A stretch of DNA of 17,375 bases. It comes from Asparagopsis taxiformis (lineage: Eukaryota > Rhodophyta > Florideophyceae > Bonnemaisoniales > Bonnemaisoniaceae). This document shows, piece by piece, positions 1 to 16,382 of the stretch. The stretch is taken from positions 1 to 17,375 of the forward strand of contig JALQPE010002871.1 of assembly GCA_030407315.1 (NCBI GenBank), written 5' to 3'. The notes beneath the pieces are model-generated. The model made no database searches, was not told the origin of the DNA, and worked only from the letters and a program-made list of their open reading frames with translations. The position numbers were made by a program, and so were the translations under genes. Every line of letters starts with the position of its first letter. Position 1 is the stretch's first letter.

Positions 1-327
1 CATTCAGATTCCACGAAGTTTGGAAATAAAAAGTTTATTATTACAATGAATTAATTGAAAATCCATGTCCCAGGGCAGTCGTTCGTCCTTCCATGCACAC
101 GTTGCCAGCACGCAATGTGATGTAACAGTTGGAAATGATTGAACTCTCGGTTAAATTCCACCGTTGGGATGTCAGCTGGAGTGAGCACAAAACTACTACC
201 CAAAAACTACGAACGAACACGTTACATTCCAAGTCTCGAAAGCACCACAAAAATAAAATTGGTCGCATCTGGACGGCACAGTCTCCCCTGTTCAGCTCGC
301 AATCCTCCCTTTTGCGTCAAACTCGAC
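1..327. other. Upstream flank of the transposase gene
   Basis: No gene is supported here. The first ~60 bases are AT-rich. The transposase reading frame is open upstream of its first ATG (an in-frame TTG lies at 139), but those residues do not resemble a domain. I looked for a terminal inverted repeat matching the 5730-5960 region and saw none, so the left end of the transposon is either outside the window or too eroded to recognise. Confidence 0.4.
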
Positions 328-3300
328 ATGGAATGCAAGTATGAAGGGTGCTTCTACTACTGCGTAGATGCTTATGCGCTCGCGCTGCATGAGCGAACGT
401 GTCGCTACCGTTTCAACCCCTCTCCCCAACATTTCAACAACGCTCGTGTCCCTGCCGTCACCCATGAGCCTGCTCGAAACGGCGACCATGATTCCCCGCA
501 ACCCAGCTCCCCAGACCCAGAATCTGGTCGTGCTTCCTCCAGCGACTCACCCTGTGACGCTTCACTGCCACCAACCTCAACCCCTCCCGCGCAGACCTCC
601 TCGTGCAATCCCTCGCCGCCAGTCTCACAACCCTCGAGTACAAGGCCGGCGCTGGCCGCGTGAGCGAAGTCATCACCATCCTACAAGACCCCGCATTCTC
701 CCTAGAAAAGTTCAACAGCGCCGTTCGCACCGTAGAAGAATGTCGCCACGTTACCGCTTCCATGGTCGAAACACATTTCCGCACCGAAGGTTACAAGAGC
801 CACATCATTCCAGACAAAACTGGTAAGTACTCGGCACAGCTGTACCTCCGCGACCCAGTCGACATGCTCCGCAGGCAGTTAGCACTGGCTAACGACCAAA
901 ATACTCTCTTCCACCCCTCCCCACAGACCGCCCCAGACGGCACCGCAATATTTTCTCATCCCCTACACACAGAATTCGCGAAAACGCTGCACCAGGTTAC
1001 TAGACAGCGCGTGCAGCTCTCGGAAGATCCACAGGTCGTATGGGCAGAGGAAAATGATCCCACCGCTTCCTCCTTTGCCGGCCTCCTCCAAGTGTACTCC
1101 GACAAGAGCAGCACAAGCCTCAAGAGCTCCGCAATCGTCGCATACCCCATACACGTCACACTGCTCAACTTCTCCGCCCCCTCCGTCGCCACTGCATCCG
1201 TACCGGCCTCACCATCGTCGGGTATCTTCCGTACATTGTTAACCCTTCGTCCAACGCCTTGTTCGGTGATGAAATGCCGACAACCTCTAGTTCTGCTAGT
1301 CGCGCTCGCAAAATTGATATTCTTCATAAAGCACTCGAAAAAGTGTTTTCGTCCCTATCCACCGCGTTCTCTTCCGGGTTCCCCTGCACAGACTCCACTG
1401 CAACTGCCCGCCAATGCTTTCCCATCCTAGCCAATTATTGCTGCGACTTTCCAGAGGCCAAAGAGCTGTCATGCACTCACAACAGCACTACCACCACACA
1501 TCCCTGCCACCGCTGCTACATCCCCGCCACTCAACTTGAATCCACCGCGCCACATCAGCCCCGCTCCCTCGATGATACACGCTCTGCACGCCAAGAGAGC
1601 GCTCAGGAGCATACAACTGCTCCGCTCGAAGCTCTCTCCCTCCTCGAACAACACTCTGTCCTCGAATCGACCGCTCTTTTACCCACCAACAGTCCCCTAG
1701 ACCCCTACAACATTTTCTCCTTCGAGCCTCTGCACAATCTCCACCTCGGCATCTCAAAGCTCATCAAACAGTGCATTGTCCACCGCCTCAGCTCCCCAGA
1801 CCTCACCACCACCACTGCCTCCCATTCCGGGACACCTCGCACCTTCAAGAAGCTGAAAAAATCCATCCTCGCCGGCTCAAACAGCATTTTGTCCGCTATC
1901 GAACGTGACTACTACATCACCGGTCTTCATGTCGACTTCTCCAAGGGTGAGAAGGGCACCAATTTGAACGGCCTCTTCACGGAGGACGGCATACGCGGCA
2001 TGCTCGCAGCCAAAGAATATCACCATGTCGACATGGTGTTCCCTTTCATCGCAGCATTCATTGACACATGCTGTGACGAAGTAGATACAGCCCCCCTCAC
2101 TTCCATCTGCACGCAATACTCTGACCTCGTCGCATGGGTCATGAAACGCGGTCGCATCAAGCACTGGACTGCCGCCGAACTAGAAAGCCTCCAGAACTCC
2201 ATTTCCTATTTCAAACAATCAATGCTCTCCACCCTCGGCCCATTCCACACCACAGGTCTCAAAACTTTCAAGTTCCATCTTCTAGACCATCTTCCCGGTG
2301 ACTTGCAGAGATATGGCGCCCTGGAACACATTGATGCAGGCCCCTACGAACACTCGCATCTTCTGTTCAAACAGAGTTATAGGAAAACCTCTCGAAGGCG
2401 CTCCACAGCCATGGAAGAGACTATTCGCCACATGGAATTCTCCTTGGCCACTCCAACTGGTCATACCCCATCGAACACATTGGGAAACGCACGCATGATA
2501 TCGCCCACAGACGGTGCAGTACTCGTTCGCGACGGATTCACCGTTGCACTGCACGACTTTGCCTCCCTGCTGCCCGATGCAACCCTCCTCGTTGCAGATA
2601 TCGACGGACAGCCCGATCCTGCCACTCTTTTGCCGCTGCACAACTCCTCGTTCCCGTCTGGCACCATAACGCTATTCCAGCAACTCGGTGACACAGCTGC
2701 ACAAGCGTTCCTCACCCTCGCTAGACTGCGCGCCACGGCAGAAGGCCCTCCAATACATGACATGGACATTTCCGTCACCGTGGTAAAGTCCGCCTACGTC
2801 ATGGGAGGGTACGTCCCAGATGCCGACGACTTTGACCCGCACAGTGGCATGCTTCGCCCCACAAACGTGTCGAGGCACAAGCAGCAGCGCGTCTTTGCAA
2901 CTTCATCGTTCGGCCCCGCAAAGAGATCGCAGTACTCCTTTGTCGTCATCTCCGGAACTGCCGATGACTACAGAACCATATGGGTAGGGCGCGTCCTGGC
3001 ACTGGTACGCCTGCAGTCTCCAAACCTGTTTCAACCTGTAGAACTCGCTTTCGTTCAGTATATGACCTGCTTTGCCCCAAAAACCGCTGTGGAAAAATCA
3101 CTTGGGTGCATTTGTTTAAAGTGGTCCACATGGGACCCGGACAACGGATCCGTTGACAGCAATGACACTGCATCCCACAGTGCAGGTGGTCCTTGGTTTG
3201 ACCTCATTCCTGCATCTACTATATCTGGCACCGTGCACATCGTACGAAGTAACTTTCCAGTCAAGCCATTTACGAAACAAATGCACTGGTCGGACCACCG

Positions 3301-3367
3301 TTTCTATCTCAACCGCTTCTACACCAACACTGATTACCAGTTCACAGATGATAATGAAGAAGAATAA
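328..3367 (+). pseudogene. Plavaka/CACTA-type DDE transposase, split over three frames
   Basis: This is a cut-and-paste transposase of the CACTA-related Plavaka/TNP2 group, acting in the nucleus on its own element's ends. The ATG at 328 begins with a zinc-finger-like motif, C-x4-C then H-x3-C (MECKYEGC...LHERTC), typical of these proteins' N-termini. A Ser/Pro-rich linker follows. The second frame (603-1190) contains YSDKSS at 1095-1112, matching the family's first catalytic Asp (SDK) block, then a YPIHVTLLN strand. The third frame (to 3367) has RTGLTIVGYLPYI, HPCHRC, EPLHNLHLGISK and KFHLLDHL...YEHSHLLFKQSY; Glu at 2348-2350 is the likely last catalytic residue. Two frame changes break it: one between 558 and 663, and one at the C-run 1177-1181, where one missing C would explain it. 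An AATAAA overlaps the stop (3363-3368). Family call is strong; activity is unlikely as it stands. Confidence 0.82.
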
Positions 3368-3444
3368 ATCTAAATCGCAGCACTCTATTGATAATGTACT
3401 ACATGATAAACCTTCTAGTCAACGTCACATTTACTGCACTAATT

Positions 3445-5728
3445 TCAACCATCCTCCATTACGCCAAAACCGTTATCAGCAGTGGCTGCATGGCGCCGCT
3501 CCATGCCCCCATACTGTGGGGCATTGATTTCGACATTCAGGTTTGCACTCAGGTGTCCAGCATATGGGTCAACGACGAAAAGTTCTGCGCCAATTAGTCC
3601 TTGCGCAATCACACAATCCATTACAGCACCGAGGTTTGACGTAATATGCGATTGAATCCAATCCTCGGACACTAGAACAAGTGATGAGCAGCGGTTTACA
3701 TCATCAACGACATGAACAATTCCAGACCCCTCTCCGCTTTGCCACACTTCAACAGCCTCTCTCGTCACAGTACGGCTTGCAAACACATGCCGTGACTGTG
3801 CACTAGTCCGCTGTTCGCTCTCGACAACGTCCGTTTCTTCCCTTGCTTGCGAGCCTTGGAGACAAGACATGCAGTACACCACCATACCAACTAATTGCTG
3901 AAAAGCTACCCCCACATATTGACTGTACCGCCTTGTAAACTCCTTCTGCCGTGCACCTCCTTTCCCCTTCGGTTCATCCAAACACTCCACAGTAGTCACT
4001 AGCCAAGCATCCAGGCGCGCCAGCGTTAGTATGCTCGTCTCTATGTCCATTACTTGTTCTGGTCGTATCGAATAACCCCTGAAGATGTCCAGCACATTCA
4101 CAGCTACTCGGTTGTTAAACCATGCATCACCATTCACTTCCATTTCGAAGCTGTCAGGAACCAGCCTTTGCTGTATCGCAGCTCTGAGAACGGTGCCGTT
4201 CGCCACCTCCCCATATCCAAATCACCGTTACTTTCCCGTTTCAAAAGCTTCTCAGACGCTTCGCGCTTTTGTTCCTCTCGCTCGTCCATCTCAGCTCGCG
4301 TCGTCAGCATCGTGCATCTAGACATTAATTTCGTGTACCCCAGCGAACCGAACAATCTGTCCCTCGCATTACGCTTCCGTGCACTCATCACGTCGGACAG
4401 TTTCTGCGTCACCTTCACTTTCAATTCCTTGCTCCCCGCCACAGCCTCTTGACAGCACACACGCTGCTCCTCATCGGAAAACACATCACACCACGGACTT
4501 TGACGCAGTACGTGTCGCACCAAGTCATTCAGCAGATCACTCTCGTCCCTGTACGAAGGTGTATACCACTGCAGATTCTTGATGATATAGCCCGGAGGGG
4601 TAGCAATATATCCTACACCGTTTTCGCTCCAAAGTGCCCCTTCTACCGGCTCTACCTCGATGGTACGTCCAGTCCAACGTCTCTGCGTTTGTTCCGCTAT
4701 AGGGTCCAGCTCCATAGTCTCGTTCTTGCACCACTTTGTCAGGTTTTCCTCAACCGCCCTAAGAACTCCAAGGTATTTCACAGGAATGGCTTTCTGTATT
4801 TTCGACTTACCGCCACCGTGATCACTGATTCTACCTGTTCTCGCAATTGCAGTAAGGCTGGCATTTTCCGCCTGCAGAGTCTTCACCTTAGCCTCCAACG
4901 CAACAATCTCCGTGGTGAGCGCCTTGTTTGCTATGTCCTGGCTAAACACTTTTTTTTCCAGCTCCGCGATCTTCTTCTTCTGCGCATTGATGCGACTCGC
5001 CATTAAATCGATGGATTCCGGCGGATGCAACCTCTCTGCCCTCACCGTCCCCCCATCTCGCACGCTATCGGGAATATGATGTCCTCCATCGCCAATAGCC
5101 TGACGTCGCGGGGGCGTTACGCGCATATTTGGCACCAATGACAGTCTGTTGTGACGAGGCCCGCACTCCGGCTGCTCTCTCCCCTCAGTACCACCTGACC
5201 GCCGATGATAGTTGGCATCCTGTGAACGTTGCTCAGAAACAACATCCCTTGCCGCTATCCTCGGGTCCCTGACTGCATTACCTGCTGGGGCTGATGTACT
5301 CGGCATAGTTGGCGCAGTGGGGGTCACAGCCTCCAGTGTCTCGGAAGCCCCGGCTGGGACTCCGTCTGCAGCACCTCCGCATCTGCCAACCCGGGAGGAA
5401 CTACCTTTGCCATAGCACTCTGCCGCAATTCCAACATGTTTTGAGCCACTATCATGTCATCATCATGATGTTCACTGTCCCTGCGAGCACGCTTGCCTCG
5501 GTCAAGCCCCATCTCTCTCCGCGCCGTTCCTCCTTCCTCACTTTCTCGCTGCGGATCCCCAGTTCTGCGCCGGTCCGTCTTGCGACTACCGGACCGCGGT
5601 TCAATGCTGCCGGTAGGCCCAGACCGCTTCTTCGCACGGGATTGTCGGGCACTCGATACAGCAGCTGCTGACCGGGTTTTCTGGAGGCCCGGAGGCTTTG
5701 GAGCTTTCTTCGCAATACGCGGCGGCAT
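3445..5728 (-). pseudogene. Unrecognised coiled-coil accessory protein of the transposon, split over three frames
   Basis: I do not recognise this family. The gene is convergent with the transposase, 77 bp between stops, an arrangement expected of a second transposon gene. The ATG at 5728 opens a very basic N-terminus (PPRIAKKAPK, KRSGPTGS, RRTGDPQRE) resembling a nuclear localisation region. A second frame (to 4134) has a Pro/Arg-rich stretch, then a coiled coil encoded at about 4991-4853 (heptads in KKKIAELEKKV...EIVALEAKVKTLQAENASL), then a compact, aromatic-rich domain (GVGYIATPPGYIIKNLQWYTP) and a charged helix. A third frame (4221-3445) supplies the C-terminus. Frame changes lie between 5453 and 5324 and between 4221 and 4134. 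Both could be single lost bases in G/C runs. A DNA-binding or transposase-partner role is inference from position and the basic/coiled-coil design only. Confidence 0.55.
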
Positions 5729-5956
5729 AATGAAGCTTTCCCGGAAGCGATGGAACGATTGAGTTGCACGAGATACAAAAAAGATTGCTGTATAGTGTCG
5801 GTAACCACAACGGTCTGCGATGAACGTTCAGGTCAGGTCAAGTACCGGATAATACGCCAACAGCCCAGATTGTATACGGTAGGCAGTCATCAACAGTATT
5901 TAATGAGGTACAATTACAGCTGTAGAGCTAGGCCGCGAGCACCCCTATGTCCGGAA
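5729..5956. other. Gap between transposon accessory gene and the inverted-repeat unit
   Basis: This is 228 bp without a supported gene. It presumably holds the promoter of the minus-strand accessory gene and the right edge of the first transposon. I found no terminal repeat matching the window's first bases and no target-site duplication. Confidence 0.35.
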
Positions 5957-6170
5957 GACGTCCTGATTTGAATTAAAATTTGGGCTATTCTCAAAAACAT
6001 GCACATGTGAACATGTTTTTGAGATGGGGGTGTGCCGTACGGCACAATCGACCGCTGAAATCGATGTTTTTTGCAATATTTTTTTCTGCCCTGAATTGTA
6101 GAATTTCTGGGCCGGACAGCAATGCAACTGAGCTGGACATCCACCGGGCGTCCATTTCAACTTGGTCGTG
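5957..6170 (-). repeat. Left long inverted repeat
   Basis: This is the reverse-complement copy of the repeat at 9926-10117. From the outside in it holds an AT-rich end, a hairpin with 12-bp perfect arms (CTCAAAAACATG at 5990-6001 and CATGTTTTTGAG at 6012-6023) around a CACATGTG core, a 14-bp perfect palindrome GTGCCGTACGGCAC (6032-6045), an A/T run, and a GCCGGACAGCAATGCAACTG segment. Its inner part extends to TTGGTCGTG at 6162-6170, matching the spacer of the tandem copies at 11585-11640, so it covers more of the repeat than the right copy does. Confidence 0.85.
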
Positions 6171-6386
6171 TATTTTGCATCTGCACGCATAACAGCATCC
6201 AAGCAGTCAGGTTCACTGCTCGGACGAAGTGCACCTAGAGTGTGAACGATTGGTTTTTGACAGGCGAGTACTGCTCAATAGGTTTCACCCTGGACTAATG
6301 GTGGCTGGACATGCTGCATTATATGATATACTTCAACTCTGGAACGTAGCTTTATTTGTAGTCGAAATGAAACATCTTTCGTGACC
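6171..6386. other. Gap between left inverted repeat and methyltransferase-SET stop codon
   Basis: I see no gene here. It is the 3' flank of the minus-strand gene and would contain its polyadenylation region. No clear AATAAA was picked out on the minus strand. Confidence 0.35.
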
Positions 6387-9300
6387 CTAATTCCATGCTC
6401 TAAACGCTGTCCCATAATGAACGTAGAGCTCCTGCCCCGGACGGATATCGCGGATTGCACGTACTACAATGATCTTCGGATTTTCTAGGTCCTTCGCCTT
6501 GAGCTTCTTCCCCGTCGAACCGCTGCTGTAGTTCTCGACAAACTCGACGTTGGCCATCCGCCTGGTGTCTTCCGCCGGAGTGTCCTCACCTCGCAAATAC
6601 CGCGGGTCGTTGATGAACTGCGCCGAACAGAACGGAGCCGGAACAATCCAAATTGGATGCTCGATGTTTTCGTCGTCCTCCGCTGTTGCATACAGCTTGA
6701 TGGCATACATCAAGAATGTTTCCTTCGTTATCGCCATGTGACCCTCTCCGTACGCGAACCTCATCGACTCCTTGCTCATATCAGAGTACACAACAGTTCC
6801 GTAGTATGCACATACTTCGTCGCCAACATTAAATGTCTGTTCAGCGAAGAGCCCTCTTCCTGCATTTGGATGCTTAATCAGCGATGGTCGAACGCTCAAT
6901 TTTTTCGCAACACAATCGTGTGCCCGCATCACGCGAGGGTTTTCAGTTTGCAACCAGCGGCGCAGGGAAGGTGGCCAATAATGTACCGGTTTTTCCATGT
7001 GCTCGTGCGACGCAATCGACTCTGGGCACAGCTGCCAGAGGTACTGCCGAATATATTTCGGGAACCTCTGGTACAGGGGAAGGCCAGGTGGGGGTTCGAT
7101 GATCCTGCGTTCCCTCTGCGTACGCATCGTGACAGAGGGGGACGCCAAGAACTTCTCAGCACTCTGTTTCGCTTCTGTCGTGACCCTCATGTCAGTGTTG
7201 TTTGAAAGAATTACACGTGACATGACTGCACACAGCTTTGGAAGCGATCGTGCCACACACAATTTGTCCATGTCACTGCCGACGAAAACACGGTGCTCAG
7301 GCAAGCTCATAGCTGCTTTTCCCGTTGCGAAAGTGCCAGAGAATGGATCGACAACAATATCACCAGGCTGTGAATGCTGGCTGATCAACTCCATCATGAG
7401 AGCGACGCTCTTCTGCTCTGCACGAACTCTGACCGTAGCACCGGTTGTGCTCCTTGTTCGCCACACCATCTCATTCGAATCGATGGCGGGCATATTGATG
7501 GTGACGTTGCACCACGCCGGGTACGTGCCGTCCATGTATCCGTGGTTCCTATAGGCCACCATCTCGCTTCCAGTCTTGAACGGAACACCTCGCTTCCAGA
7601 AGTGGATAGCGACCTCTGCCATGTTCATGCGTTGGTACCTCTTCCGCCCCGGCATTTGATAGAGGTGCCCAGGTAGTCGGACAAACAACAGAGGTACCTC
7701 GTCAACGAAGAAAACTGAATTCCGAACGACGTCCTCCTCCTCCTCGTCCTCCTCCTCATCCGCACTTTCTTCGCCACTGTGCTGCGATGCTTCGGAGTCC
7801 GAATTCATGGACGTAACCTCTTCTTCATCCGACCCGTCATCACTGGCAGCAGCATCGGTTGGGCCTTCTGACTGCGGTCCTTTGTACGTTTCCAAGTAAT
7901 GGAACCATTCGTAGAACTGCAAAACGGAGCAGAACACGATGCCGTGGCCACCGGGGCGCAACAGCTCGTCAAACACTTCGATGCTAGCCTGCATATCTTC
8001 TGCAGTTAGCCTGTCGTACGAAGAGTTGGAATCGTTCCTCTTACGACGAACATTGTAGGGCGGATCAGTCAGAATGAGCTGAACGTTGCCCGTGATGGGC
8101 ACGTGTTCTCGGCTCTCGTCGGCACTGACCAAATCTTCGAAAGGGACGTCGTACACCCGGCAATACTGACTCATTTTCGAAAGAAAGTCCTTTGCGAGAG
8201 CCTGCCCTTCACTTTCCTGCTCTTCTGTCGCATGGGGTGACGGTGACGGGGGAGACGGCCCTTGGGCAGTAAGACTGGTCCTCCCAGGTCCAAGTTGAAG
8301 CCTGGTTGTGTGTCTTGTCGACGGAACCAAACCTCTCCCTCCTGTGTTGCGACGAGTGGGAGTGTCATCAACCGGCTTGGGGACCTTTTCTGCGTCCGCG
8401 GCTTGTGGTGCCGGGCGGAGGACAGCCATAACGTCTTCGTCGAGGGTGTCAAAGTACGCTGGCAGCTTGTCCGGATTTCCGCTTGACAAGTATATTTCCA
8501 GCGCCCCCCAGCGGTCGGACTCCGGCCAGGTGTACAGGTCCGGGTTGACGATAAGAAACTGCAACCGGTCGAAGAACTTCCTCACAAGGTCCCTAAATGC
8601 ACTGTGCTGCGCACTGGTTCTTGTCTCTACTTTTCCACCATATCCATCAGGATGAGATAGGGGAGCTTTGTCGTGGTAGAGATCTAGCTTCTGCTCCATC
8701 GGTGCGAATAGACCTTCATCGAGCACGTCAAACCAATGCTCACTGCTGTCGAAAATGATGTACGGCGCCATCAACTCTTCGAAGCTGGAAAACTTTGCGG
8801 CGAAGGCCACATCGGTCCAAGCATGGTATAAAACTTGAACCACGTAACAAGCTCGATTAGTGCTTTTCCGATGGGCTGGGACGCGTGCGGCTTCGTTCCC
8901 CTCTTCGGCCGCGTCGCCTATTCGGCGACGCGGCAGGTTCTTGTTGTGATTTCGGATGATAGACAACGCTTGGAAATACATCAATACCTCGAACGTTTCC
9001 GGTGGAGCAAGAACGAAGGCGCTTGGTTCCCCGCGCTGCGGCGCCTGTAGTGGCGAAGGAAGCATGTTACATCCAATAAGGAAGGTCTGCGGCACGATCC
9101 CAGAAAGGATGCAGTGCTCAACCCATTGCCCGATACGCTCATCCTGTCTTGAAAACTCGGCAATGGTAATGCCAGACGAACAATCTGCTTGGCTCGCTCA
9201 ACGTTCATCTCTGCCATGACGATTTCGGCAACATCCGCCTCGACTCCAGCATTCTTCGAACGACCGCTGAAGGCCATGCTGAGTCGACCTTGCAGCGCCA

Positions 9301-9583
9301 GAAATTGTTCTTCCGTGCCCTGCGCAACCCAAGCGCCAAGGTCCGCGTATGTGAAACCTCCCGGCTTGTCCGTCAAGTCTGCGAAACTTGAGTGGGCGAA
9401 CAAATCCAGCAAGAGGCGGAGGAAGTCTTTGCCAGCGAGAGTAGTTTCGCGGGCGGCGCGACCTACGTTTCGACGTGTACCCATGTCACTAGAATCCTCC
9501 CAAGGGCTAGCGGGTTCGCGCAGAATTGGCACGGTTGCGTCGTCAACGATCGGATTGCTGTTGCGCCTGCGCTTATTCGTCAT
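6387..9583 (-). pseudogene. DNA amino-methyltransferase (DPPY, beta-class) fused to a SET domain, with one frame change
   Basis: ATG at 9583; the first frame is readable to about 9197-8981 and has no domain I recognise. The long second frame (open from 9197 to 6387) carries everything recognisable. DPPY, catalytic motif IV of N6-adenine/N4-cytosine DNA methyltransferases, is at 8066-8055. The AdoMet motif DPFSGT...GKAAM is encoded near 7349-7305, followed by HRVFVGSDMD. The order IV then I is the beta arrangement (N6_N4_Mtase type). Between them is an acidic Ser/Glu/Asp insert (about 7850-7725). The C-terminus (about 6884-6387) is a SET domain: GRGLF, an YYG strand, QFINDPR, ANVEF and ELYVHYG; SET domains methylate protein lysines with AdoMet. 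The two frames overlap by up to 217 bp and differ by -1. If the frame change is an assembly error, the gene is intact at roughly 1,065 residues. Adenine versus N4-cytosine target cannot be told from DPPY alone. Confidence 0.85.
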
Positions 9584-9925
9584 AATGGAATGAGTGGAAA
9601 TTCGGTACAGGATGGCGACCGCTCGGCGAGACAGTCAAATTTGACGACGTATCTCGTGACGTTTGCACTCTTTCGTGAGGAACACTGGTTGATATCGAAC
9701 GGAACAGAGTATACGGGTACACAGCACTGGAAAGGTCTTGAAACCCGTAACCGGTGTAGGTAATAAGTTGTGACGGATACGTGGTAGAGAAAAATATTAA
9801 AAAGATTGTGATTCCCTGTCTTTGAGTGTTGTACTGCACGGCCGCCATGGCGGCTGTGACTGCAGTCACATAGGTTGTCACAGGTGCATCACGCTTACCA
9901 GGTGAGCGACATCCGGACGGCCACT
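9584..9925. other. Upstream region of the methyltransferase-SET gene
   Basis: This is 342 bp between the gene's ATG and the right inverted repeat. No coding region is supported. It should hold the promoter and contains two adjacent perfect palindromes at 9841-9870 (listed separately). Confidence 0.4.
9841..9870. promoter_or_regulatory. Two back-to-back perfect palindromes
   Basis: GCCGCCATGGCGGC (9841-9854, 14 bp) is followed without any gap by TGTGACTGCAGTCACA (9855-9870, 16 bp). Both are perfect dyads. They sit about 260 bp upstream of the methyltransferase-SET ATG and about 55 bp inside the right inverted repeat. Either could bind a dimeric protein acting on expression or on the element's end. 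The function is inferred from symmetry and position only. Confidence 0.4.
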
Positions 9926-10117
9926 GGACATGGGGATGTCCAGCTCAGATGCATTGCTGGCCAGACCAGAAATTCTACAATTTCGGGCAGAAAAAATATT
10001 GCAAAAAACATCGATTTCGGCGGTCGATTGTGCCGTACGGCACATCCCCATCTCAAAAACATGTTCACATGTGCATGTTTTTGAGAATAGCCCAAATTTT
10101 AATTCAAATCAGGATGC
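9926..10117 (+). repeat. Right long inverted repeat
   Basis: This is the inverted partner of 5957-6170 and is in the same orientation as the tandem copies at 11250-12075. It contains GTGCCGTACGGCAC (10030-10043) and the hairpin arms CTCAAAAACATG (10052-10063) and CATGTTTTTGAG (10074-10085), and ends in AATTCAAATCAGG at 10113. Open frames across it (for example 9930-10208) recur in every copy only because the DNA is repeated. Confidence 0.85.
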
Positions 10118-10139
10118 AGATATTCGTCTTCTAGCATTG

Positions 10140-10388
10140 TCAGAACACATTCGTATAACCACATTTGGAGAACCTGAGCCCAGAGCTATCGGTTTTGGCG
10201 GGAGCTAAGCCATATCTCATATAATCAGTAACTACTTCCCGCCAGCTGAGTGGTGGAACCCCTGCTATTTCTACCAACGAGACATACGGGGTGTCAACTC
10301 GGCAATCGTATATGATTTGGGTGCTAAATTTATTCAAGAGACGAATGGGCTTCGAAAAGGAGCCCAACAACGTCTTCTTGTGATCCAT
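10140..10388 (-). CDS. Small unrecognised open frame, 82 residues
   Basis: An ATG-started frame lies next to the glycine-rich repeats. Its first residues (MDHKKTLLGS) resemble the MDEKKSMLRC and MDEKKNMFRS segments encoded in the repeats at 10410-10676, so it may be the diverged 3' portion of one glycine-rich protein gene now broken into several frames. I see no known domain, signal peptide or membrane span. It could equally be non-coding. Confidence 0.2.
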   Translation of the reverse strand: MDHKKTLLGSFSKPIRLLNKFSTQIIYDCRVDTPYVSLVEIAGVPPLSWREVVTDYMRYGLAPAKTDSSGLRFSKCGYTNVF

Positions 10389-10409
10389 GGGTATAGGACT
10401 ACTCTATTC

Positions 10410-10724
10410 TTCTCCAGGCTTCCACCATAGCCTCCTCCACCACCTCCGTTAATGGATCGAATATCCGAACCGCACCTCAACATGCTTTTCTTCTCATCCA
10501 TGGGTACTGACATCTGCGAGATGTGAGTCACATGTTCTCCAGGCTTCCACCATAGCCTCCTCCACCACCTCCGTTAATGGAACGAATATCCGAACCGGAC
10601 CTGAACATGTTTTTCTTCTCATCCATGGGTACTGACATCTCACATGTTCAACATGTGAGATGTCAGTACCGGACAGTTCTCCAGGCTTCCTCCGTAGCCA
10701 CCTCCTCCACCTCCGTCTGTGGGA
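10410..10724 (-). repeat. Three direct repeats encoding glycine-rich peptide on the minus strand
   Basis: Copies begin (TTCTCCAGGCTTCC) at 10410, 10535 and 10677, so the periods are 125 and 142 bp; the third copy is truncated. Read on the minus strand, each encodes (T/I)(D/N)GGGGGGYGGSLE, and the two full copies add MDEKK(S/N)M(L/F)R(C/S)GSDIRSIN. The peptide is conserved while the periods are not multiples of three, so the copies no longer share a frame. This looks like a duplicated exon or fragment of a glycine-rich structural protein gene; no intact gene remains. Confidence 0.7.
10628..10670. repeat. Perfect 43-nt palindrome
   Basis: Arms 10628-10648 and 10650-10670 (21 bp each, beginning GGTACTGACATCTC) are exact reverse complements around a single C at 10649. 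It lies in the linker of the second glycine-rich repeat. The matching linker of the first copy has only short imperfect dyads, so the palindrome arose after duplication, perhaps by template switching. Confidence 0.9.
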
Positions 10725-11249
10725 ATCAACACAACATCACCACTGCGTCTTACCTCACATCCACATCTCTCCGGGATGAAAACGGACGGACGACATAGGG
10801 TTTGTAGACGTTTAGAATCTTGTTAGAAAAAAGTAAACGAAAGAGAAGTTCTCTTTCATTGAATGATATCTCGTCCCTGTCGCAATATGTTCCATTTTCA
10901 TTTTCTCGGGTTGCACACCCATCATGGGTGATCAAGGCCTGGATCGAACCCTCCGAGGGTCTTCGATGGATAGGACAGATAGTGGAAGGCTTTTAAGCCT
11001 GTGACCAAGCGGCTATTGATTGGTTGGAGGAAGGAAATTACAGAGGAAATATAGCTGAGTACGGTGCTCGCAATAGCTGTTAGGTTAAAGTCAAATATGT
11101 TTTTCGATTATTTTTCGTACGGAAATGCTTTGGAAAAGACGATGCTTTATCGTTCTCTTGGAGGGAGTCCGTTGCATTGCACTCAATTCGAGAGCATCGT
11201 CATGAAGGAGAGGATTCTTTCTGCTTGTTAGAATCGGTTTAGAGGAGAT
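10725..11249. other. Non-coding stretch between repeat blocks
   Basis: No gene is supported. It contains GGATCGAACCCTCC at 10942-10955, which resembles a reversed tRNA T-loop but is not part of a foldable tRNA. Otherwise I see nothing. Confidence 0.35.
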
Positions 11250-12075
11250 AGCTAATGCATTACTGGCCAGCCCAGAACTTGTAGAATTTCGGGCAGGAAA
11301 AATATTGCAAAAAACATCGATTTCGGCGGTCGATTGTGCCGTACGGCACATCCCCATCTCAAAAACATGTTCACATGTGCATGTTTTTGAGAATAGCCCA
11401 AATTTTAATTCAAATCAAGGTGTCTAATTTGGCCAGAACGGCCCCAGGCACCGGCCGCCGCCCCGAGTAGGGTTGTCACTGGCTTCTGTAAGCACTAACT
11501 GTAAGGCTAAATGGCGTCTGACGAAGGGTCAATTTCAGGCTCAATACGCCAGGGACAGGTCTTGGTCCTTGTTCCATCATGGTCCCGCCTCACTCTCTCA
11601 CGACCAACCTCAAATGGACGTCCGGTGGATGTCCAGCTCAGATGCATTGCTGGCCAGCCCAGAAATTCTACAGTTTCGGGCACAAAAAATATTGCAAAAA
11701 ACATCGATTTCGGCGGTCGATTGTGCCGTACGGCACACCCCCATCTCAAAAACATGTTCACATGTGCATGTTTTTGAGAATAGCCCAAATTTTAATTCAA
11801 ATCAGGGTGTCTTAATTTGGCCAGAACGGCCCCAGGAACCGGCCGCCGCCCCGAGTGGGGTTGTCTCTGGCTTCTGTAAGCACTAACTGTAAGCCAAAAT
11901 CTCGTCTCACGACGGGTCGATTTCAGGCTCAACACGTCAGGGACAGGTCTTGGTCCTTGTTCCATCATGGTCCCGCCTCACTGTCTCACGACCAACCTCA
12001 AATGGACGTCCGGTGGATGTCCAGCTCGATTGCACTGCTGGCTAGCCCAGAAATTCTAAAATTTCCGAAAAATCA
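11250..12075 (+). repeat. Tandem array, ~388-bp period, made of the inverted-repeat sequence plus a spacer
   Basis: The ATGCATT(A/G)CTGGCCAGCCC block occurs at 11252 and 11641, and a diverged version at 12028, giving periods of 389 and 388. The first two copies carry the full ~165-bp core with GTGCCGTACGGCAC (11336-11349, 11723-11736) and the hairpin (11358-11391, 11745-11778). The third stops after AAATTCTAAAATTTCC. Between cores is a ~225-bp spacer containing AATTTGGCCAGAACGGCC, a GC-rich block and GGTCTTGGTCCTTGTTCCAT. The spacer is absent outside the right end of the 4.16-kb unit, which helps define where that unit's end lies. Confidence 0.88.
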
Positions 12076-12137
12076 ATTTGGTGGCCCAGCATCTGCTGTG
12101 CCGAAAATTCCCGCAGTCACTTCTGATATACTATATC

Positions 12138-12157
12138 GTAGTAGTAGTAGTAGTAGT
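12138..12157. repeat. (GTA)n microsatellite
   Basis: Six and two-thirds perfect GTA units, just past the truncated third tandem copy. It is a short simple repeat with no sign of function. Confidence 0.9.
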
Positions 12158-12500
12158 CTAGACGTGTTTCGCACTTGTACGCATCAGGGAAGGCTGCACG
12201 GAAGGTTGAGAGTACGCTACTTGTGTACCGCGTCGTCTGAAATAGCGAGTAGTGTTTGTTGTATAGTTGTGGAGTATGCGTCTAGTGGTTTGTAAAGCTT
12301 GCAGAACGGGATAGGGATGTGGGTGGCCCTATTTTATGAATACATGAGTACCAATATTCAAGGGTGACAAAGCGGAAAGTCATAGGCTCGTACATGTTTG
12401 AGATTGCATAGTGGAGAAAATATTTACATCGAAATTTACATGGAGCTGATGGAGGTATTGAGGATGAGGTATGAGAGGAATAAATTCTTCTGTGGTATGA

Positions 12501-12992
12501 AGATGTGTTCTGTGGGGGGATGGAATCTTGGGATGGTACAGGGGGAGGTGGAAATGTACGGAGTGCGGGTTTAGAATGGAGTGTGATTCGGAGAGGAGTG
12601 CCGACAAGCATATTATGGGGATTGGGGAGACGCTGCGGGGTGTTGGGGTAGTGAGGGCGGAGGAGGTGTTTAGGTGGGACCGTAGGAGGGTGCGGTTGAA
12701 GGCGCCGAGAGGAGGGGGTTTTAGGAAAGTGAGGAGAAAGAAGGGGAGGGTGGCGTCTGTTCTGGCTGTGGTGAGTGGGGATGTGATGGAGAAGAAGGGG
12801 TTATTGTACTTGGGGAGGGAGGGGAGTGGGAGGAAGGGTGCGAAGTGGGGGGTTGATATGTGTTTCAGAGCGGGGAGGTTTCTGGGGAGACGGCGGGGGA
12901 GCGGGAGCGTGGGCCGGTGGTGGTGGTGTATACGGTATCGAAGATGCGGATGGCGTGGGGGCATGGAGCAGCTGAGGGAGGGAGGGGTGTAG
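12501..12992 (+). CDS. Possible zinc-finger-like open frame in G-rich DNA
   Basis: This frame is open from 12501 to a TAG at 12990 but has no ATG near its start (TTG at 12528), so it would be an exon or a remnant. It encodes WKCTECGFRMECDSERSADK, a CxxC followed by a further Cys and a His, suggestive of a metal-binding knuckle, then a basic region (FRKVRRKKGR) and a stretch ending EKKGLLYLGREG. The whole region is so purine-rich on this strand that long open frames arise easily on both strands; the Ser/Pro-rich minus-strand frame (13138-12380) is probably its shadow. Coding status is uncertain. Confidence 0.3.
   Translation, partial: RCVLWGDGILGWYRGRWKCTECGFRMECDSERSADKHIMGIGETLRGVGVVRAEEVFRWDRRRVRLKAPRGGGFRKVRRKKGRVASVLAVVSGDVMEKKGLLYLGREGSGRKGAKWGVDMCFRAGRFLGRRRGSGSVGRWWWCIRYRRCGWRGGMEQLREGGV
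12812..12830 (+). other. G-quadruplex motif
   Basis: Four G-runs (GGGG, GGG, GGGG, GGG) are separated by loops of 1, 1 and 3 bases, fitting the canonical G3+N1-7 pattern. Another cluster with loops up to 7 lies at about 12893-12925. These follow from the region's G-richness; a regulatory role is not shown. Confidence 0.6.
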
Positions 12993-13430
12993 CAGGTCGG
13001 GTACGGGATGGGGAGTGAGAGGTTTTGGAAGAGTAAGCTGCAGGGGAAGTTTGTGTAGAGGGCGAAGGAGAGGGGTTGAAGGTAGAGGAGAGAGGGTATT
13101 GAAGAACAATACGTTTCAAAGGTGATGGGGAAGACCATGGTCGAGGAGATAGGGGTGTTTTTGCCCTATTCTGAGGTATTATGAGGACTGGTTATACGAA
13201 ATCTGTACGGTAGAGCAGAAAAGTAGGTATCATACCTCATTCCATATGGAATGGAGGTGTGCACCGTGGAAGCGGGGATAGGTAGCTGAAAATGCGTGCT
13301 AGAGTGGTATTGGGGGTGTTTGAGGTACAGTACGGGGGAGGTGAGCACCAACAGGAAGGGGGTGTGAGCGAGAGGATGAAAAAATTAAAGACGAAATTGG
13401 AGTCGACCGACAAGGAAAAATAGAGTGGTC
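12993..13430. other. Non-coding, purine-rich to mixed stretch
   Basis: The G-rich skew continues to about 13140 and then fades. I see no supported gene or named repeat. Confidence 0.35.
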
Positions 13431-13580
13431 GCCGTGATGGATGCGGACATCCATGTCGAGCACGGCGGCAGAAATTTCTGGGCTCGAAATTTTTGAATTT
13501 CTGAACCGGCGCCCGTCCTAGGTGGACATAGACATGGCGGAAGTCCTTCCCGAGGGGGACATCCGTGGTACTAGAAACAA

Positions 13581-13710
13581 TGGATGTCGCCCTAGTAATA
13601 CTAGACGTACTAGACCGCATGGACGTCCGGTTCTAGGCGGACATCCAAAAATACTGGAGAACATGGACGTCCGCCTAGTAATACTAGGTGTACTAGAGGT
13701 TGTGGACGTC
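13581..13710 (+). repeat. Dyad-rich tandem repeat with TGGAYGTC every 38/45 bp
   Basis: TGGATGTC or TGGACGTC occurs at 13581, 13619, 13664 and 13702 (spacings 38, 45, 38), an 83-bp higher-order unit present about one and a half times. Units contain the dyad CTAGTAATACTAG and mirrored GGACGTCC/GGACATCC elements. A diverged start may be visible back to about 13527. Confidence 0.7.
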
Positions 13711-13721
13711 CGCGTCCATTT

Positions 13722-13919
13722 CCGAGAACACAGACGAAGGCTTTCGGAACGAAGAAGCTGTCGCTGTTCGAAACTAAGTGGTACGGACCGTTTAAGGTCA
13801 TCCAATCTAGCCACCCCCGATACCTACTCGCCTCCGACCAAGCGAAGGTATCACGTCGCCCCATCCATGCGAGACGTCTACTTCTCTTCCGTAGGCGTCC
13901 ACAACATCTACTGCATTAA
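13722..13919 (+). pseudogene. LTR-retrotransposon integrase C-terminal fragment
   Basis: The frame reads RTQTKAFGTKKLSLFETKWY followed by GPFKVIQSSHPRYLLASDQA, then a basic tail to a TAA at 13917. The W-x-GPFKV block followed by a Tyr-Leu strand is the small beta-barrel that ends integrases of Gypsy-type polyproteins. No protease, reverse transcriptase, RNase H or integrase core is present upstream; the fragment abuts the dyad-rich repeats. It is a short relic, so the superfamily assignment is tentative. Confidence 0.6.
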
Positions 13920-14084
13920 GTTTCCATTAGGGAAACCCTTCGTTTGCACACTCCCTTTTATGCATAATCCCTTTTAATCATTCAACCCTTGTCTACGCAT
14001 TCATTTCAATTCTAGATCTCTCTACCCATTACTAGCTAGTCTACTCAATACGATTCATTTCCTTCTCTATCAAATCGTTCTGTG

Positions 14085-15610: not shown

Positions 15611-16081
15611 CAATTGATGTTCAGGACGATAGAATGAGGTGGAAATGCCATTCCAGCCGCATGTTCAGGCATCTGGCTACGAAATGTCGGGCAGAATGGA
15701 GTATCTCTCTCGGTGGTCTTCATAGAAGTGTATAGGGATAACCAAGTGTGATCTAAAAGGATGTCAGAATTTTTATGTAGCAAGGACAACGATGCCTGAA
15801 GGATTGTTTCAGTTCTATCATTAGACTAGACTACTCATAAAATCGAACTATCGTATCTAAATCTTACTATCTCTACAACCAGGACTATTGTGCAAGCAAA
15901 TCGAGTTCCTCGCTGTTTCAAAACTACATGTGATGTTCAGACAGGAGGGAAATAAACACCATTACAGATGATTTGCAACAGGCTAGCAATCGGATATAGA
16001 AAAGTATTGTAAAGGATGAGAAGAACATGAGTATGAATGGAATGAACAAACTTACCATCATTGAACTATTTTTGCGTGCAA

Positions 16082-16151
16082 AGGTATTGGTTGTAGGTTG
16101 GAATGACGAAAGCTTGCAAGCTTTCGTCATTCCAACCTATAACCAATACCT
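16082..16151. repeat. 70-nt palindrome with one mismatch and no spacer
   Basis: Arms 16082-16116 and 16117-16151 (35 bp each) are reverse complements except for one base pair. The centre is AAGCTTGCAAGCTT. It can extrude as a cruciform. No gene flanks it closely. Confidence 0.92.
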
Positions 16152-16382
16152 ATGCCAGAATCATTTGCAATCAATAGACTAGAATAGGATCAGCGAAGAA
16201 CGATATTTATGGTTAGTGCACTATCTTTCATGGAAGCATGTGGAAAGAAATGAGAGAGGGGAAGATACCTACTCGACAACGTACCAGCCTTACCTGTCAT
16301 CTTCATGATAACCGGATGATGAAATGGTCCTATACGTCGCGCATCAACAGCCTTAAATAGACAGCTCATCCACTCATAATGA

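What the first reader, a model, noticed from the sequence alone, without database searches (positions are those of the whole stretch)
6387..9583. DNA amino-methyltransferase and SET domain in one protein, carried by a candidate mobile unit
Seen: DPPY, then DPFSGT..GKAAM in the beta order, then a C-terminal SET domain with GRGLF, FINDPR, ANVEF and ELYVHYG, in one reading frame. Known: beta-class N6_N4 methyltransferases are mainly prokaryotic, phage or viral. Eukaryotic captures are rare; the bdelloid rotifer N4CMT joins such an enzyme to a chromodomain. SET domains methylate protein lysines. Inference: this protein could write a DNA mark and a histone mark together, letting an element set its own chromatin state, or it could be a domesticated or virus-derived chromatin enzyme being moved by the repeats.
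Basis: partly seen in the sequence, partly recalled or inferred. Interest (0 to 1): 0.88.

Follow-up and report, generated by a model that had tools for sequence, protein, structure and literature searches.

The report
Seaweed transposon carrying DNA-and-histone methylase
A transposon family with hundreds of copies in what is very likely a red alga's genome carries one gene that joins a DNA-methylase domain to a SET (protein-lysine methylase) domain, and fuller copies also carry a predicted oxygenase gene, so the element may be able to write, and possibly erase, chromatin marks on itself.

Summary
Window 6387-9095(-) is one frame with an N6_N4_Mtase and a SET domain, both above Pfam cut-offs. 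The window copy has a single-base frame break near 9165; 19 of 19 sister copies examined keep the longer frame (1065 aa). The gene is cargo of a ~20-kb Plavaka-type DNA transposon with 33-bp terminal inverted repeats: 2416 exact ends, and 841 MTase, 926 transposase and 789 oxygenase marks in a 141-Mb genome (a red alga by its phycobiliprotein genes, very probably Asparagopsis taxiformis). Fuller copies carry a fourth gene, a predicted Fe(II)/2-oxoglutarate dioxygenase with a ParB-like front, which the window copy lacks. The MTase-SET segment is inverted in part of the copies. No C5-cytosine methyltransferase matched in the assembly. Best reading: an element that likely marks its own chromatin (predicted 6mA plus lysine methylation). 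Activity, target base and effect are untested. DNMT-bearing retrotransposons, TET-bearing Plavaka and SET-bearing Harbinger elements are known; ten full-text searches showed no description of this fusion and pairing.

The parts
1..13736 (.). Part of one transposon copy held by the window; the left end lies beyond the contig end; this copy lacks the dioxygenase gene
   Evidence: Homology to sister copies runs to exactly 13736; no match in the window to the ~4.5-kb stretch with the dioxygenase gene of L048 and L052; a 15,630-bp TIR-bounded copy with transposase and MTase marks but no dioxygenase mark exists elsewhere (C12:302749-318378)
139..3367 (+). Plavaka transposase gene, split over three ORFs in this copy (139-663, 603-1430, 1259-3367)
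   Evidence: ORFs; PF18759 E=8.3e-15 in the window ORF 1259-3367; E=2e-24 in sister copy L047:5409-7998; open frames of 1036-1037 aa in many scored copies
3445..5728 (-). Second element gene (coiled-coil protein, about 765 aa over two or three overlapping frames), no curated family
   Evidence: ORFs 5324-5728, 4134-5327, 3445-4206; sister copies L056 and L057; no Pfam match above its cut-off
5955..6170 (-). Internal inverted-repeat arm downstream of the MTase-SET gene, at which the segment is flipped in some copies
   Evidence: 86-98% complementary to pieces of 9934-10114, 11298-11425, 11599-11813 and 11987-12063; inversion junctions in L089 and L090
6387..9583 (-). MTase-SET gene; 1065-aa ORF in sister copy L009, here with a single-base frame break near 9165
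7263..8084 (-). N6_N4_Mtase domain (TDPPYNV at 8049-8069, DPFSGT at 7332-7349)
   Evidence: PF01555; motif positions
6411..6860 (-). SET domain (FINDPR at 6600-6617)
   Evidence: PF00856; motif position
9934..10116 (+). Internal repeat upstream of the MTase-SET gene
11240..12065 (+). Tandem copies of the ~387-bp internal repeat; in fuller copies the dioxygenase gene lies within this repeat region and is missing here
   Evidence: L048 and L052 hold about 4.5 kb with the dioxygenase gene between stretches that match window 11.6-11.8 kb and 11.6-12.5 kb
13704..13736 (-). Right terminal inverted repeat; element end at 13736
   Evidence: pattern counted 2416 times in the genome
13737..17375 (.). 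Flanking DNA outside the element
   Evidence: homology between copies stops at 13736

Best explanation
The MTase-SET gene is cargo of a ~20-kb Plavaka-type DNA transposon that occurs in hundreds of nearly identical copies in a genome that is very likely a red alga's, and its product is predicted to methylate DNA amino groups (likely N6-adenine) and protein lysines (likely histones) so that the element likely marks its own chromatin. Shown by the calls: the two-domain frame and its conservation, the terminal inverted repeats, the copy number, the recurrent spacing to the transposase gene, and a further gene (dioxygenase fold, ParB-like front) that sits beside MTase-SET in this element and, as a relative, in a second, diverged repeat family. 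Inferred: that the methyltransferase and SET domains are active, that they act on element copies, that the dioxygenase removes or oxidises one of the marks, and that the purpose is to keep element copies expressed and mobile in spite of host silencing. The MTase-SET segment lies in either orientation, most simply through recombination between inverted repeats; whether that changes expression is unknown.
Against: No activity, modification or expression data. The SET core motif is unusual (ND in all 6 A1 rows, where many SET enzymes have NHS; recalled), and one relative has lost the DPPY motif (P0006: APPQ). Of the four TIR pairs longer than 15 kb only one shows a 2-bp duplication; five of the six duplications come from ~10-12-kb derivatives without the gene marks. 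The right flank of the copy whose left junction was checked does not continue the target. The MTase-SET dN/dS of 0.12-0.29 comes from copies chosen for protein similarity, and 5 of the 8 transposase pairs from loci ranked by transposase score, so these are biased low. 75 of 140 scored SET hits of the weaker, element type lie in frames shorter than 1065 aa. Only 16 of 87 MTase marks meet both spacing conditions at once. The MTase-SET model is poor (mean pLDDT 48.4). The second repeat family was not shown to be mobile.
Confidence: 0.6

Rival explanations
1. The enzyme serves transposition itself rather than chromatin: DNA methylation (for example hemimethylation after replication) times or licenses transposase action at the ends, as Dam methylation does for some bacterial elements (recalled), and the SET domain methylates the transposase or is a binding module.
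For: The gene travels with the transposase at a recurrent distance. Adenine methyltransferases are also reported in DIRS retrotransposons (passages of PMC5890265). The SET domain has a non-standard core motif.
Against: It does not explain the recurrent dioxygenase partner or why a SET domain is kept in all 6 members of A1 and in the second family.
Confidence: 0.2
2. The marks silence the element: it limits its own harm by recruiting repressive methylation, and the dioxygenase reverses this in a chosen life-cycle phase.
For: In bdelloid rotifers a captured amino-methyltransferase writes 4mC that supports silencing of transposons (abstract and passages of PMC8885841). A writer gene and a predicted oxygenase gene sit close together in two families.
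Against: The 19 sister copies compared differ from the window by only 0-7 substitutions over the 3.2-kb gene (a set chosen for similarity), which suggests recent and vigorous spread.
Confidence: 0.2
3. The methyltransferase and SET gene is passive cargo or a host gene captured and amplified by chance, without a role for the element.
For: Many ends belong to copies without these genes: among the first 100 of 2416 ends, 25 of 51 left ends have no transposase mark 3-6 kb inward and 27 of 48 right ends no dioxygenase mark 1.5-6 kb inward (contig ends and mutated marks not excluded), so mobility does not need the gene in cis.
Against: Both domains are kept at about 25-39% identity across relatives, with catalytic motifs in most, and the pairing with a dioxygenase recurs.
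Confidence: 0.08
4. Virus-derived or viral element (giant virus or Polinton-like) rather than a transposon.
Against: No relative found in one scan of the viral contig collection. The element has a Plavaka transposase and short terminal inverted repeats; none of the 8 window ORFs scanned matched a capsid, packaging or DNA polymerase family.
Confidence: 0.02

Closest known systems
[quoted passage not shown] passages seen)
   Same: Plavaka transposase, terminal inverted repeats, 2-bp target duplications, an epigenetic enzyme as cargo, and an Fe(II)/2OG dioxygenase carried along
   Different: Here the cargo is an amino-methyltransferase fused to SET; the dioxygenase was not shown to be TET/JBP and has a ParB-like front; termini are CGTCTGTG..CACAGACG; host is not a fungus
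DNMT-bearing LINE, DIRS and Gypsy retrotransposons of dinoflagellates and charophytes (PMC5890265; passages seen)
   Same: A DNA methyltransferase amplified as transposon cargo, with purifying selection reported for the Gypsy ones
   Different: Cytosine-C5 enzymes in retrotransposons; no SET domain or dioxygenase gene mentioned in the passages seen
HarbingerS and MuDR transposons with a SET gene in oomycetes (cited in PMC12730594; originals not seen)
   Same: DNA transposons carrying a SET methyltransferase
   Different: No DNA methyltransferase in the same protein is mentioned in the passage seen
Bdelloid rotifer N4CMT (PMC8885841; abstract and passages seen)
   Same: Bacterial-type PF01555 amino-methyltransferase in a eukaryote that lacks C5 methyltransferases, coupled to histone marks
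   Different: Host gene (allelic pair) with a chromodomain reader, not a transposon gene; the SET function is in separate SETDB1 proteins
Amoebidium Plavaka giant repeats (PMC11244446; section 7 read)
   Different: Many genes are tyrosine recombinases; no amino-methyltransferase or SET cargo is mentioned for the Plavaka units in that section (a Dam methyltransferase is named for the adintovirus regions)
Expanded N6_N4_Mtase genes in Asparagopsis taxiformis (PMC12115072; passages seen)
   Same: Very probably the same assembly; 66 N6_N4_Mtase genes called potentially the most striking feature
   Different: Discussed there under gene duplication; transposon, SET fusion and dioxygenase partner are not mentioned in the passages seen

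Membership tests
Plavaka DNA transposon | Plavaka transposase domain (PF18759) | tested here: met
   E=8.3e-15 (55.3 bits) in the window ORF, E=2e-24 (86.9 bits) in a sister copy, cut-off 26.3 bits
Plavaka DNA transposon | Terminal inverted repeats | tested here: met
   33-bp TIR at both ends, 2416 exact occurrences, control 0
Plavaka DNA transposon | 2- or 3-bp target site duplication | tested here: met
   2 bp in 6 of 10 TIR pairs (by eye): 5 of 6 pairs of 10-12 kb, but only 1 of 4 pairs over 15 kb; none at the C2181 copy
Plavaka DNA transposon | Termini TGT..ACA (PlavakaA) or CATCA..TGATG (PlavakaB) | tested here: not met
   Termini are CGTCTGTG..CACAGACG; so a Plavaka relative outside the two fungal groups described in PMC12730594
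Plavaka DNA transposon | C(2)C and H(3-4)H motifs between catalytic residues | tested here: inconclusive
   CHRC is visible in the translated frame and HNLH lies further on; catalytic residues were not mapped
Beta-class amino DNA methyltransferase | PF01555 with motif IV before motif I | tested here: met
   DPPY at residue 507, DPFSGTF at 746 of the 1065-aa protein; PF01555 over cut-off
Beta-class amino DNA methyltransferase | Fold of solved beta-class enzymes | tested here: inconclusive
Beta-class amino DNA methyltransferase | Methylation of DNA, 6mA or 4mC | not testable with these tools
   Needs assay or read kinetics
SET lysine methyltransferase | SET profile and core motifs | tested here: met
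   PF00856 over cut-off in the window, L009 and L091 proteins and matched in 6 of 6 A1 members; terminal YG in 7 of 7; the central motif is ND rather than NHS
SET lysine methyltransferase | Lysine methylation of histone | not testable with these tools
   No assay
Fe(II)/2-oxoglutarate dioxygenase (partner gene) | HxD...H facial triad and 2OG arginine | tested here: met
   Pattern in 8 of 8 A2 members plus the second family's protein
Fe(II)/2-oxoglutarate dioxygenase (partner gene) | Double-stranded beta-helix fold | tested here: met
TET/JBP dioxygenase | Match to TET/JBP profile or fold | tested here: inconclusive
   No such Pfam match; the fold lists shown are filled by other 2OG dioxygenases
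ParB-like domain (partner gene) | ParB profile similarity and DGxHR-type motif | tested here: inconclusive
   Motif DG.[HN]R in 8 of 8; profile match to prokaryotic ParB-MTases E=1e-4 but probability 57.6%; no ParB match in Pfam

The most novel reading that the evidence does not exclude
A transposon family has supplied a red alga with its own epigenetic system: one enzyme writes a DNA amino-methyl mark and a histone-lysine mark together, a co-carried oxygenase edits them, and because the host has no detectable C5-cytosine methyltransferase these element enzymes are the main DNA methylation machinery of the nucleus, with the writer gene's orientation flipped as a switch.
Probability: 0.2. Interest if true: 0.95.

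Novelty: new variant of a known kind. Interest (0 to 1): 0.84.

Why it matters
Mobile elements that carry one epigenetic enzyme are known. This one joins predicted DNA and protein-lysine methyltransferases in one polypeptide and pairs the gene with a predicted oxygenase, a pairing that recurs in a second repeat family of the same genome. It offers a direct test of whether transposons can run their own write-and-erase system, and it would explain the reported N6_N4_Mtase expansion in Asparagopsis as transposon cargo. If the host is that species, it concerns a seaweed of interest as methane-reducing feed. PacBio reads exist (PRJNA809757, named in PMC12115072), so the main prediction may be testable without new sequencing if kinetic data were deposited.

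Tried and rejected
Virus origin: one viral-contig scan with two peptide patterns gave 29 pattern hits and no relative. Sequence searches of PDB for the dioxygenase protein: none at E up to 1 with one sequence, two chance-level matches with the profile (E 0.24 and 0.28), so the assignment rests on motifs and fold. Pfam on the 8 dioxygenase relatives: best match E=0.21, a DUF, in one member. TET/JBP identity of the dioxygenase was not shown. MTase-SET structure prediction was too poor to judge the SET fold. Origin of the methyltransferase domain: the last homology search gave 237 proteins, 120 listed, the strongest being mostly unnamed relatives, with prokaryotic methylases (some with PF02195 ParB) much weaker; no tree was built. 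dN/dS on MTase-SET copies is biased by how the copies were chosen. Target duplication for the C2181 copy: its right flank does not match its left target. The ~11-kb derivatives were sampled by one 3-kb stretch without ORFs of 100 aa or more. The Foldseek library 'viral' was not searched. Papers: 10 full-text searches; 'N6_N4_Mtase' and 'SET domain' together occur in one held paper, the rotifer one; subscription papers are mostly not held.

Full report
OBSERVATION. The 902-aa frame at window 6387-9095 (minus strand) matches PF01555 (E=1.9e-15) and PF00856 (E=7.9e-07), both above Pfam's curated cut-offs. Motif IV (DPPY) precedes motif I (DPFSGTF), the beta-class order, and the C-terminal part holds AGRGLF, FINDPR and ELYVHYG. 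The window copy has a single-base frame break near 9165; the 19 other copies compared keep the whole frame. Those 19 were among the best-scoring copies. In a set ranked by SET score rather than by frame length, 65 of 140 weaker, element-type SET hits lie in an open frame of at least 1065 aa (150 of 1661 candidates were scored).

HOST. The window is a whole contig (C2742) of a 141,494,207-base genome in 3156 contigs. Phycobiliprotein genes lie mainly on one contig, one of them twice, 177,170 bases apart, which I read as a plastid genome that wraps round: a red alga. A. taxiformis lineage 6 is reported with 142,472,235 bases, 3308 contigs and a 176,936-bp plastid, and with 66 N6_N4_Mtase genes called potentially the most striking feature (PMC12115072, passages). 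The identity with that species is an inference from these numbers; no name comes from a call.

THE ELEMENT. Comparing copies gave the right end at 13736 in the window, shared with two other copies, and the left-type end in L031, L047, L049 and, reversed, L055. Both ends carry nearly the same 33-bp inverted repeat. One copy (C2181) spans 92342-112234, 19,893 bp. A degenerate form of the repeat occurs 1211 + 1205 times without mismatch, and never when read backwards. Exact 32-base marks occur 841 times for the MTase, 789 for the dioxygenase and 926 for the transposase. At the C2181 left junction the surrounding repeat continues without the element in 10 of 10 places read, out of 39 other places listed; the right flank of that copy does not continue the target. 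Of 10 TIR pairs, 6 are flanked by matching 2-bp sequences (read by eye): 5 of 6 pairs of about 10-12 kb and 1 of 4 longer ones (lengths, which lists 11 facing pairs; the eleventh, on C100, was not fetched). The six shorter pairs hold none of the three marks, and a 3-kb sample of one has no ORF of 100 aa, so they look like non-autonomous derivatives. Two-base duplications and the PF18759 transposase fit Plavaka as described by Kojima (PMC12730594, passages); the terminal bases differ from both fungal Plavaka groups.

GENE CONTENT. Order in fuller copies: Plavaka transposase (+), coiled-coil protein (-), MTase-SET (-), then a protein of 1353 aa in L052 (+), with matching open frames of 1352-1450 aa in the full-length hits. 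Of the first 87 of 841 MTase marks (contigs C1-C290; the 13 further listed ones were left out because the transposase list ends at C290), 58 share a contig with a transposase mark: 41 at 5.8-6.5 kb in the same orientation, 7 at 7.0-7.4 kb in the opposite one, 10 elsewhere. 50 share a contig with a dioxygenase mark: 40 within 4.5-8.6 kb, 27 in one orientation and 13 in the other. 16 of 87 meet the first transposase condition and the dioxygenase condition together; contig ends and altered marks lower these numbers. The opposite orientation reflects an inversion of the MTase-SET segment between inverted repeats: both junctions were read on contig C135. The window copy has no match to the dioxygenase stretch, and a 15,630-bp copy on C12 has no dioxygenase mark.

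CONSERVATION. A homology search returned six MTase-SET proteins, one at 99% identity; the five diverged ones are 29-39% identical to the query in alignment A1 and all carry both domains. A second repeat family in the same genome was read at one copy (L091): it encodes a 1158-aa MTase + SET protein, aligned with the first over 747 columns, E=4e-63, with a dioxygenase-like protein on the same 10-kb stretch, E=1.5e-21, which keeps HxD...H...R. In one search, 78 of the 150 scored PF01555 hits have the same score as that copy, which is why I call it high-copy; its ends and transposase were not found. Relatives of the two proteins share contig lengths 15726 (P0004, P0010) and 7918 (P0005, P0011), which I take to be the same contigs; their organisms are not named. 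Other families (L003, L006) carry PF01555 without a SET match. One relative (P0006) has lost the DPPY motif.

SELECTION. Pairwise dN/dS is 0.30-0.31 for the dioxygenase gene (2 pairs) and 0.30-0.47 for the transposase (8 pairs, 5 of them with loci ranked by transposase score). The MTase-SET value of 0.12-0.29 (8 pairs) comes from copies found by protein similarity and is biased low.

HOST METHYLATION. PF00145 (C5-cytosine methyltransferase) gives no match in this genome (0 candidates); the control genomes are prokaryotes and 10 of 14 ring. The paper reports 81.6% complete BUSCOs for the probable assembly, so absence is not proven. Ten SET hits at E below 1e-10 look host-like; the other 140 scored have E of about 1e-6, apparently of the element type.

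MECHANISM. Shown: a repeated, TIR-bounded element that carries these genes, and conservation of the fusion. Predicted: the methyltransferase acts on DNA, probably on adenine, since DPPY and the closest solved structures point to N6 enzymes (low-confidence model; the link of DPPY to adenine is recalled); the SET domain acts on lysine; the dioxygenase modifies a mark. Inferred: element copies are marked to escape host silencing. Rivals are control of transposition, self-silencing and passive cargo.

NOVELTY. DNA methyltransferases in retrotransposons (PMC5890265), TET/JBP enzymes in DNA transposons including Plavaka, SET genes in Harbinger and MuDR elements (PMC12730594 and references it cites, not seen), and a captured amino-methyltransferase coupled to histone marks in rotifers (PMC8885841) are in print. 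The fusion of an amino-methyltransferase with SET inside a DNA transposon, with a dioxygenase partner, did not appear in ten full-text searches of an open-licence library. I rate it a new variant of a known kind.

Noticed in passing
L091 (C382:8501-18500): Second high-copy repeat family: MTase-SET protein of 1158 aa with a ParB-like motif near its N-terminus, and a dioxygenase-like gene on the same 10 kb; its ends and transposase were not found
   Followed up: partly
whole genome: No C5-cytosine methyltransferase match and only ten SET hits at E below 1e-10, against hundreds of element-borne MTase-SET genes
   Followed up: partly
window 5955-6170, 9934-10116, 11240-12065; L089, L090: The MTase-SET segment is flanked by internal inverted repeats and is flipped in part of the copies (13 of the 40 that lie near a dioxygenase mark)
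   Followed up: yes
L003, L006: Further methyltransferase families without a SET match, with a ParB-like DGxHR motif upstream; in L006 a cysteine-rich C-terminus
   Followed up: partly
L092 and TIR pairs on C11, C12, C14, C20, C49, C90: TIR-bounded elements of about 10-12 kb without the gene marks; the one sampled is non-coding and shares the internal repeats; 5 of the 6 show 2-bp target duplications
   Followed up: partly
window 4134-5728: The coiled-coil gene changes frame at the same place in two sister copies (L056, L057) but not in the window, where other breaks occur; slippage, intron or sequencing error not resolved
   Followed up: no
window 16078-16155: A 39-base inverted repeat with no spacer, 95% complementary, in the flank outside the element
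   Followed up: no
window 13737-13920: The flank right of the element reads like the C-terminal part of a retroelement polyprotein (by eye); the Pfam test did not run
   Followed up: no
P0006: A relative that keeps SET and motif I but has APPQ in place of DPPY, perhaps a protein that kept only the SET function
   Followed up: no
PMC12115072, figure legend: The bromoform gene cluster contig of A. taxiformis is drawn with site-specific and adenine-specific DNA methyltransferase genes; these may be copies of such elements beside an economically important cluster
   Followed up: no
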